Assembly (NCBI GenBank): GCA_964019055.1
Contig: OZ025209.1
Span: 12,198,981 to 12,262,980, forward strand
Origin: Anthopleura xanthogrammica
Taxonomy: Eukaryota; Cnidaria; Anthozoa; Actiniaria; Actiniidae
Direction: 5' to 3'
DNA length: 64,000 nt
Within the stretch, counting starts at the first letter, position 1. Each line of letters starts with the position of its first letter. A program made the translations under genes and the position numbers. Positions 10,636 to 62,086 of this stretch are shown piece after piece. The notes beneath the pieces were generated by a model. It was not told the DNA's origin and made no database searches. It saw nothing but the letters and a program-made list of their open reading frames with translations.

Positions 10636-13600
10636 ATGACTGGACGCGCGAGGGGAAGGAGTAGAGGACGTGGAAGAACAGATGCTCCACCACCAGGAGC
10701 TGGAGACGTAGCCAGAAGACCAGGAGAAGCCGCTACAGCTCCCCCAGCTGGAAGAGGTAGAGCCAGAGGACCTCCATCGGACTCGGTAGTTGCACCACAA
10801 GCTGCAGCGCCCCCGCCAACTGCTGAAATGGCAAAGATGGCTGTCAGCGAGCCTCCACGTGGTGAAAAAGAAGAACGACGAAGAGTAGGAATGCACAGTG
10901 AACCAGTGACCCGTCCTGAAGGTCTAAACAAAGAAGGCGCTACAGGGACCAAGGTGGAGATCGTCACCAATGCATACAAGCTAGAAACGCGACCTAACTA
11001 CATGATATATCAGTATAATGTAGCATTCTCGCCCGAAGTTGACTTCAAGAAAGTCCGAATAGGGCTCATTGCAGAGCAACAACAGCTCCTTGGCACTGTC
11101 CGGGCCTTTGACGGGATGACTTTGTTTTTGCCCAAGAAACTGCCAGATCCGATCACAAAAATTGTTGGGCTGAGAAAGAGACGTGATAACCCAGAAGGGG
11201 AGCCAGTTGAGATCACTATAACCCTAACAAATGAACTACCAGAGTTCAACCCAACCAGCCTCCACATCTACAACATCGTCCTCAGGAAGTAAGAAGCAAA
11301 CCAGTTTTTAATGTACAGGGCATGGGTCCCATATAGTACTGTATTTTCATTCATATTTATGTGGTCTTCATATCATCATTTATTTATGAGTTCATTTTGA
11401 TGTTTTTAATAGGAGTACATTGAAGAAAATTAGGTCATAGTTCAATGTGTGTTATTTTTTCAGGATTCTCAAGATCCTGAACATGAAGCAAGTTAGAAGG
11501 GATTTTTACTCTCCAGACCAAGCTGTGAATATTCCTCAACATCAGTAAGTAATTTCTTTTGGTTTTAGGGTACCAGGGATCACATAACAGTAGTGTCCTC
11601 TCCTTGCTTCAGGGGGGGTCAGGTTTGATTCCTGGACTTGGCATGAAATGTGACTATAATTTTTTGGGTCTCTAGGGTTTTTGTCTGGGTCAGAAACCTG
11701 AACTGCGAGAGAGACGGCAATAGATTTCATCTTGTTGTTTATACAATCTTATCTTTCTAATGGAATAATGAAGTTGCATCAAATGAACTTGATCTTGAAA
11801 TACAATTGTTTTTTTTTTCTGGTCTCTGATTGGCTTGACTACCCAAAGTTTGAATGCATGGTTTCATTCTACATTTTGATTGGTTATCACTATCTGGATG
11901 CACAGTTCTGGGATTGCAAATTTGTGTTAAGTTTTAATCTTCATTTTTATCTATAAAAACTTCTGTTGGCCACATTTTAAGTTGTTTTAAATGGAGACTA
12001 ATTCAGCATTGTTTCCTTTCCTTTTAGCTTGGAGCTTTGGCCTGGATACCAGACTTCGATTCAGAGGTTTGAGACAGATATTCTACTCAGTGCTGATGTG
12101 TCCCATAAAATCCTAAGAAATCAAACAGTATTGGAGGTCCTCTATGACATGTATAACCAGGACCAAAGGAACTTTCATGCCAATGCTAAAAAGAAGCTGA
12201 TTGGACAGATTGTACTCACAAGGTATGAGTTAACATAATGTATATTATTTGACATGAAATGATCAAAGCACCCTTCCTTGATCTTTTTTGCAAGGAATAC
12301 AAGTTAGGGACTCTGGAAAAAATATTCTTCCATTGAGAATGCAGGGCTTCAAGTGTCCCCATATTACCTATATTTTATTTTTTAAGTTTCCCTATATAGT
12401 TCTTAAATTCCTATAATTTTATTGAGAAGAGAAATGGAAACGAAATATTGTTAAGGAGGCTGGCTACAATTTCTCTTGTGCTCATCCCTCTTGACTTTGG
12501 GCCACTGCAGTCCCTACATATCATCTTGGAATTTCACCCAACTATTGTATGAAGATTGAAGTTTGTAACAATGTTACACCTATTTCAAGATGCAAATCAA
12601 AAACAGTGACGTCACTGTTTGGTTGCAATGGTAACTCTTATGCCAATGAAATATACATTGTTACAAACAAATCCTCAACAAGTGATGTGAGCAACAAATT
12701 GAAGATTATTAAAGCAAAAAAATCGTTTTTCGTTTATTACTCATTATTAAAAATCACCATTGGAAATTTATTTTTTGGGAAATATAGCTTATTGTGTATT
12801 CTCTTGAAAAATGTAAAAACCTAAAAATCAACGTTTTGGGGCAATTTTGGGGTACCCTGATACCTTAACTTCAAACTGTCAGCTATTTTACGAATCAGTC
12901 TCGATAATTAAGAAGTAAAATTAGAGGAAACAGACTCCTATATTTGAATCCCATCCATCTACTTGAATTATTATTCAAACCCCTGGACTAGGGTTTAATT
13001 CCAATATTTCTTTTAAAAAGATAAATGTGTTGTTTAACCTTGATTCAAGTTTTTTTTCCAGAATTCTCTGGTTTACTTCCTTGACAAAACCTAACAAAGA
13101 TACTTATTTGTTTTATGCTCTTTTTCAAGGTACAACAATAAAACCTATCGGGTAGATGACATTAATTGGGATCTCAGGCCACATCATAAGTTCTCAACTA
13201 CACGTGGAGAGATAAGCTATATTGATTACTATGCAAAGGTAAATATTTCTTTAAAAAAGATAAATGTGTTGTTGAAATCCAAGGAAAAAGTAAATACATG
13301 TTTTTTGTCTATCTTCACAGGCATATGATAAGCAGATTGCAGACATGGAACAACCCATGTTAATCAGCAAACCAAAAAAAGTGGTAAGTTCAGGCTACTA
13401 TTAAAGGCCAAAGTTGCACAAGGTTAAGAGAAGTGCAATTTAGCTAAGCTTTGAGTGTTACTGGTTTTGAAGCAACACAATCCAGGTGTTTTTGTTGGTC
13501 ATTTCTTTTAGAATATATACCAGGAACAGAATATAACTATGCAGAAACACTAACCAGGACCACTTGAATAAAACTGACCAATCAGATAACAGTAAACTAC

Positions 13601-62086: not shown

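What the first reader, a model, noticed from the sequence alone, without database searches (positions are those of the whole stretch)
10636..62086. Convergent duplicate pair of intact PIWI genes 22 kb apart
Seen directly: 18 exons pair one to one, 16 with identical lengths, the other two differing by 6 and 9 nt, and both joined frames are open to the same C-terminus. This is an inverted duplication with two single-copy-type genes (SLC43-like, SNAP29) in the middle. Known: most animals carry a few diverged PIWI paralogues; a recent closely linked pair with conserved slicer residues suggests dosage increase or early specialisation in an invertebrate with continuous germline and stem cells.
Basis: partly seen in the sequence, partly recalled or inferred. 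Interest (0 to 1): 0.85.

Follow-up and report, generated by a model that had tools for sequence, protein, structure and literature searches.

The report
Inverted PIWI1 gene pair, sea anemone
This sea-anemone DNA carries two complete, facing copies of the germline transposon-silencing gene PIWI1, made by a lineage-specific inverted duplication; one copy has changed faster than the other while keeping its cutting site, which makes it a natural case for studying how a genome-defence gene changes after duplication.

Summary
Two 18-exon PIWI genes face each other: A (+, 10636..24080, 868 aa) and B (-, 62086..46565, 863 aa), stops 22,484 bp apart. All 34 introns are GT-AG, neither frame has an internal stop, and 16 of 18 exon pairs have equal length. 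A SNAP29-like gene lies between them, with a gene whose N-terminal piece matches LAT4/SLC43A2.

Two corrections. The animal is a sea anemone, not a coral: its SNAP29 is 86% identical to Actinia tenebrosa against 46% to the one named stony coral, and the tree groups A and B with Exaiptasia and Nematostella PIWI1. The copies are not equal: B has changed faster (branches 0.037 and 0.115; 11 against 40 polarised changes). The asymmetry lies in exons 1-12; exons 13-18 show none (6 and 4). The pair as a whole is under purifying selection (dN/dS about 0.4), and the catalytic and 5'-phosphate residues are unchanged in both.

Best reading: a real inverted duplication; A keeps the PIWI1 role, B is relaxing or specialising. 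Expression, the rest of the genome and other actinioids could not be examined. PIWI duplication is known in flies and aphids, so interest is moderate.

The parts
10636..24080 (+). PIWI1 copy A, 18 exons: 10636-11288, 11464-11544, 12028-12222, 13130-13238, 13321-13383, 18336-18399, 18658-18775, 19100-19142, 19223-19294, 20322-20509, 21292-21446, 21720-21844, 22233-22336, 22823-22893, 23006-23165, 23245-23385, 23535-23682, 23964-24080 (stop included); 868 aa
   Evidence: Pfam PAZ, Piwi, Piwi_N; Nematostella PIWI1 68%
46565..62086 (-). PIWI1 copy B, 18 exons (5' to 3'): 62086-61440, 59019-58939, 57704-57510, 56385-56277, 56192-56130, 55116-55062, 54147-54030, 53007-52965, 52873-52802, 52185-51998, 50053-49899, 49433-49309, 48806-48703, 48177-48107, 47891-47732, 47486-47346, 47182-47035, 46681-46565 (stop included); 863 aa; faster-evolving copy
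   Evidence: Pfam; PDB Piwi-like protein 1 E 1.9e-271; rate
10573..24197 (+). limits of the arm of the inverted duplication that holds A (partner 46481-62145)
46481..62145 (-). limits of the arm of the inverted duplication that holds B
35423..36118 (+). SNAP29-like gene, single coding exon, 231 aa, between the two PIWI genes
   Evidence: 86% to Actinia tenebrosa SNAP29-like; Pfam weak
28795..33451 (-). SLC43/LAT4-like transporter gene pieces between the two PIWI genes (only the 33068-33451 piece is confirmed by a match; limits approximate)
   Evidence: ORFs; LAT4 E 9.1e-12; no significant match for 28795-29160
13856..18041 (.). ISL2EU-like DNA transposon inside intron 5 of A: THAP+HTH+DDE ORF 13958-15484 (+), YqaJ ORF 15915-16865 (-), about 110-bp inverted ends (80% alike); intron 5 of B is only 1,013 bp and does not align
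   Evidence: group description PMC4482050 passages
59106..60776 (+). Two ORFs in one frame, split by a stop, with weak reverse-transcriptase and GIY-YIG matches (both below Pfam cut-off), inside intron 1 of B, antisense to B; Penelope-like is my recalled label
   Evidence: GIY-YIG 22.4 bits, cut-off 22.6; RVT_1 19.2 bits, cut-off 29.6

Best explanation
The two genes are PIWI1 paralogues made by an inverted segmental duplication of the whole PIWI1 gene in a sea-anemone lineage near Actinia, after it split from Exaiptasia and Nematostella. Each encodes a PIWI Argonaute with a complete slicer site. By established family knowledge (recalled) such a protein holds a piRNA by its 5' phosphate in the MID pocket and its 3' end in PAZ, cuts complementary transposon RNA with the DEDH site, and docks Tudor proteins through arginine-glycine motifs in its tail. 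A is the conservative copy and most likely keeps the ancestral germline and stem-cell role. B keeps the catalytic half at A's pace but has changed faster in exons 1-12, the tail and L2 linker most of all. I read B as specialising in partner, guide handling or tissue rather than in chemistry, or as a less constrained copy on the way to loss. Shown: gene anatomy, orthology, lineage-specific duplication, rate asymmetry, retained catalytic residues. Inferred: piRNA binding, expression, Tudor effects, division of labour. Probability about 0.75 that both are real, intact paralogues with B diverging; within that, specialisation and slow loss are about equally likely.
For: Exon-for-exon match, 34 of 34 introns GT-AG, no internal stop. 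dN 0.060-0.065, dS 0.144-0.171 over four methods; 121.5 nonsynonymous and 87.5 synonymous differences over 2010 and 573 sites, neutral expectation rejected at 2.6e-10. Tree of 24 proteins: A+B at support 100, A+B+Exaiptasia at 83, these with Nematostella at 100; branches A 0.037, B 0.115. Relative rate: 11 A-unique and 40 B-unique with Exaiptasia (chi2 16.5; that protein is truncated and covers roughly the first 620 residues), 20 and 47 with Nematostella (chi2 10.9); polarised by either, A 19, B 51, unpolarised 39. DEDH unchanged; MID Y568, K572, Q584, K603 unchanged. B changes G11 (G in 113 of 114 relatives), R230 (R in 130 of 130) and F294 (F in 129 of 130). A/B differences by domain: L2 16 of 60, tail 20 of 102, PAZ 19 of 127, N 16 of 120, MID 18 of 150, L1 6 of 54, PIWI 14 of 248. 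Exaiptasia PIWI1 and its SNAP-type relative are both listed on a contig of 413,712 bp, so the linkage probably predates the duplication.
Against: No transcript, read depth or small-RNA data. No row named as an actinioid appeared among the 120 listed of 864 or of 845 matches (candidates capped at 7980), so age and spread within actinioids are open. The asymmetry is absent in exons 13-18 (A 6, B 4 polarised changes) and weak by one count: of 230 columns conserved at 90%, A departs in 9 and B in 12 (at 95%: 2 and 8 of 185; at 98%: 0 and 3 of 116). R230K and F294Y are mild changes. B's second tail change is at position 13, which is variable among relatives, and B's 3 RG dipeptides (A has 6) also occur in 2 of 66 relatives with the same start. 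B's rough nonsynonymous to synonymous ratio, 0.56-0.62, assumes equal silent change on both branches and fits early decay too. Domain limits for tail, L1, L2 and MID are my approximate assignments.
Confidence: 0.75

Rival explanations
1. Both copies were kept for dosage: they do the same job and the differences are drift in tolerant positions.
For: Slicer half almost identical and without rate asymmetry: exons 13 and 16 have no amino-acid difference, PIWI domain 14 of 248, exons 13-18 A 6 and B 4 polarised changes.
Against: B is faster over the whole protein and changes residues kept in 129-130 of 130 relatives.
Confidence: 0.17
2. B is already a non-functional young copy, still open by recency and chance. 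(Overlaps with the slow-loss branch of the best explanation, so the odds listed do not add to one.)
For: Faster protein change, rough ratio near 0.6; changes at near-invariant positions.
Against: No stop or lost splice site at about 15% silent divergence; the rough neutral test for B alone gives P 0.001-0.006. Intronic transposons are in both copies.
Confidence: 0.12
3. Assembly artefact: two alleles or haplotypes joined in inverted order.
For: An inverted repeat is a classic assembly trap (recalled); I had no reads.
Against: Silent divergence 14-17%, well above the usual 1-2% between alleles (recalled); introns differ in size and transposon content; the SNAP29-like and SLC43-like ORFs show no second copy.
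Confidence: 0.04
4. The two arms exchange sequence by gene conversion, so they are older than their mean divergence suggests and the slicer half is kept homogeneous. (Compatible with the other readings.)
For: Silent plus intron divergence is uneven: 30 of 591 sites around exons 13-15 against 45 of 219 around exons 6-9; chi2 47.1, 6 df, P 1.8e-8 over 2051 sites, all aligned intron pieces included (one search gave the same picture without introns 9 and 10).
Against: Fourfold-degenerate sites alone are not significantly uneven (P 0.13); intron counts rest on locally alignable pieces chosen by BLAST, introns 5 and 6 give none, and neighbouring sites are not independent.
Confidence: 0.3

Closest known systems
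Nematostella vectensis PIWI1 (piwi-like protein 1, P0001)
   Same: Orthologous: 68% identity over 98% of A, shared MTGRAR tail, same group in the tree
   Different: The searches listed one such protein for Nematostella; here there are two linked inverted copies
Exaiptasia diaphana PIWI1 (P0112, annotation of 638 aa lacking most of the Piwi domain)
   Different: Only one copy seen in the searches
Dipteran Piwi/Aub duplications (Aedes, Anopheles and others; PMC4824172, passages)
   Same: Recent lineage-specific PIWI duplicates with altered tissue specificity reported
   Different: Insects; [quoted passage not shown] no statement seen about an inverted linked pair
Pea aphid piwi expansion (PMC3230593, title and start of abstract)
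   Same: Expanded piwi genes in an animal alternating sexual and asexual reproduction
   Different: Insect; expansion studied across morphs
Nematostella AGO duplication (PMC7713132, title and start of abstract)
   Same: Argonaute paralogues whose functions were compared in a sea anemone
   Different: Ancient duplication of miRNA-guided AGO, not PIWI

Membership tests
PIWI-clade Argonaute | PAZ and Piwi domains in Argonaute order | tested here: met
   Both above gathering score in A and B
PIWI-clade Argonaute | Closer to PIWI than to AGO proteins | tested here: met
   B against PDB: Piwi-like protein 1 E 1.9e-271; best Ago chain is HrAgo1 at 5.6e-74, next Argonaute 10 at 9.1e-48
PIWI-clade Argonaute | DEDH slicer residues | tested here: met
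   D632, E670, D702, H843 of A and their partners in B; which residues form the site is recalled
PIWI-clade Argonaute | Binding of piRNAs | not testable with these tools
   needs small-RNA immunoprecipitation
Cnidarian PIWI1 orthologue | Groups with Nematostella PIWI1 rather than with other PIWI paralogues | tested here: inconclusive
   Support 100 for the group with Nematostella and Exaiptasia, and Piwi-like protein 1 scores above Piwi-like protein 2 (906 and 715 bits), but no PIWI2 sequence was in the tree
Inverted segmental duplication of a whole gene | Intron positions, intron sequence and flank shared, opposite strands | tested here: met
   All 17 intron positions shared; 15 of 17 introns have an alignable piece, introns 5 and 6 none; tens of bases of flank shared at each end
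Gene conversion between arms | Tracts of abnormally low silent divergence | tested here: inconclusive
   P 1.8e-8 with introns, P 0.13 on fourfold sites alone
ISL2EU transposon (element in intron 5 of A) | THAP+HTH+DDE ORF, YqaJ ORF, inverted ends, AT target duplication | tested here: inconclusive
   ORFs met, inverted ends met, target duplication not resolved

The most novel reading that the evidence does not exclude
An actinioid anemone lineage has split PIWI1 into two linked slicers, A for the old germline and stem-cell programme and B with an altered tail and linker for a new partner set or tissue, while exchange between the inverted arms keeps the shared catalytic half uniform.
Probability: 0.13. 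Interest if true: 0.65.

Novelty: new member of a known kind. Interest (0 to 1): 0.4.

Why it matters
Nematostella Piwi1 marks a cell population that gives both gametes and somatic cells (PMC11464780, abstract and passages). A natural duplicate of this gene in a related anemone, with one copy accelerating outside the slicer half, would allow a direct test of whether germline and somatic PIWI duties can be separated. If B proves silent or decaying, the case is an ordinary duplicate.

Tried and rejected
Coral origin: rejected from SNAP29 and the PIWI tree. Processed retrocopy: rejected, all 17 intron positions are shared. Allelic misassembly: judged unlikely, not excluded. Gene conversion: left open, since the unevenness is not significant on fourfold sites alone. 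Homology ending exactly at the stop codon, as one search suggested, was wrong: one search shows 117 bp (A) and 84 bp (B) of shared 3' flank. Structured RNA: no match at Rfam gathering scores. Literature: five PMC searches (20 of 126 papers listed, 15 of 32, 15 of 15, 12 of 90, 15 of 22) listed no title or abstract start describing a PIWI1 duplication in sea anemones; I did not read the full texts, and subscription papers and preprints are mostly not held. One Nematostella piRNA-pathway paper asked for by a recalled DOI is not held. Passages of PMC6114907 and PMC5569025 were looked at and add background only: PIWI2 knockdown stops Nematostella metamorphosis; PIWIs form two early animal subgroups, both with cnidarian members. 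Structure prediction was not attempted: the proteins are spliced and cannot be read letter for letter from the window.

Full report
Observation. Self-comparison of the window shows one collinear inverted chain between 10.6-24.1 kb and 46.6-62.1 kb. Exon-level translation, inspection of boundaries and transfer of each exon to the other arm gave two 18-exon genes, A 868 aa and B 863 aa. A recount gives 34 of 34 introns GT-AG, no internal stop, 16 of 18 exon pairs of identical length (exon 1 differs by 6 nt, exon 6 by 9 nt) and 22,484 bp between the stops. The genes converge.

Identity. Both are PIWI-clade Argonautes: PAZ, Piwi and Piwi_N are above Pfam cut-offs, and B matches Piwi-like protein 1 in the PDB at E 1.9e-271, ahead of the best Ago chain (HrAgo1, 5.6e-74) and the next, Argonaute 10 (9.1e-48). 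The best listed relative of A is Nematostella PIWI1 (68% over 98%); Exaiptasia reaches 64% over 70%; the named stony corals reach 53-59% (with a four-sequence profile gave the same leader). Only the best 120 of 864 and of 845 matches were listed. In a 24-protein maximum-likelihood tree A and B are sisters at support 100, join Exaiptasia at 83, and with Nematostella form a group at 100. No PIWI2 sequence was in that tree.

Organism. The SNAP29-like protein between the copies is 96% identical to an unnamed contig, 86% to Actinia tenebrosa (Actiniidae), 62% to Actinostola, 59% to Exaiptasia, 58% to Nematostella (over 90%) and 46% to the stony coral Oculina. The window is therefore most likely from a sea anemone near Actinia. 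Exaiptasia's PIWI1 and SNAP-type proteins are both listed on a contig of 413,712 bp, so the neighbourhood probably predates the duplication.

Selection and asymmetry. Pairwise dN is 0.060-0.065 and dS 0.144-0.171 by four methods; neutrality for the pair is rejected (P 2.6e-10). Relative-rate counts are 11 A-unique against 40 B-unique with Exaiptasia (truncated, so only about the first 620 residues) and 20 against 47 with Nematostella; with either outgroup A 19, B 51 and 39 unpolarised. By exon, exons 1-12 give A 13 and B 47, exons 13-18 give A 6 and B 4: the acceleration of B spares the slicer half. Assuming equal silent change, the ratios are roughly 0.17-0.24 for A and 0.56-0.62 for B. Departures from conserved columns among 130 relatives: at 90% A 9 and B 12 of 230; at 95% A 2 and B 8 of 185; at 98% A 0 and B 3 of 116. 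B's include G11R in the tail, R230K at a residue kept in 130 of 130 and F294Y (129 of 130); the last two are mild. B has 3 RG dipeptides in its first 110 residues, A 6; 2 of 66 relatives with the same start also have 3. DEDH and the MID Y-K-Q-K residues are unchanged. Divergence is highest in L2 (16 of 60) and lowest in the PIWI domain (14 of 248).

Mode of divergence. Fifteen of 17 introns have some alignable piece, introns 5 and 6 none; agreement runs from 78% (intron 8) to 96% of 389 compared bases in intron 13 and 65 of 66 in intron 15. Silent plus intron divergence by block ranges from 5% to 21% (P 1.8e-8), which would suggest conversion tracts, but fourfold sites alone are not significantly uneven (P 0.13). 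I keep conversion as a possibility only. Transposons differ between arms: an ISL2EU-like element with THAP-DDE and YqaJ ORFs in intron 5 of A (PMC4482050 passages), and ORFs with weak reverse-transcriptase and GIY-YIG matches in intron 1 of B.

Mechanism. Shown: two coding-intact slicer-type PIWI1 genes, one faster outside the slicer half. Inferred: both load piRNAs and cut transposon RNA; B's tail and linker changes may alter Tudor docking or guide and target handling. Division of labour is untested. Known parallels are dipteran Piwi/Aub duplicates (PMC4824172, passages) and the aphid piwi expansion (PMC3230593, title and abstract start).

Verdict. Real, correctly described, mis-assigned to corals. 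A new instance of a known kind, with a useful asymmetry. Interest 0.4.

Noticed in passing
41169-45096: Satellite array of 33 copies of a 118-bp unit (97% matches), beside a 60/357-bp repeat at 39739-40815 and its weaker inverted copy at 40816-41166, about 1.5 kb downstream of copy B's stop.
   Followed up: partly
6309-9500: Probable DNA transposon: about 390-bp inverted ends (94.6%) around ORFs 6855-7829 and 8211-8792, which match no Pfam family significantly.
   Followed up: partly
24106-24643: Two tandem copies of a 271-bp unit at the 3' end of PIWI copy A; part of the unit also matches the 3' flank of B.
   Followed up: partly
27030-27968: 20-bp minisatellite, 47 copies, open in all three + frames over 336-371 codons; looks like a mechanical consequence of the repeat, not a gene.
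   Followed up: no
50293-50676: Near-perfect 384-bp palindrome (94.8%) in intron 10 of copy B, perhaps a foldback element.
   Followed up: no
29240-29472: Three identical copies of a 77-bp unit within the SLC43-like gene region, which suggests a very recent expansion.
   Followed up: no
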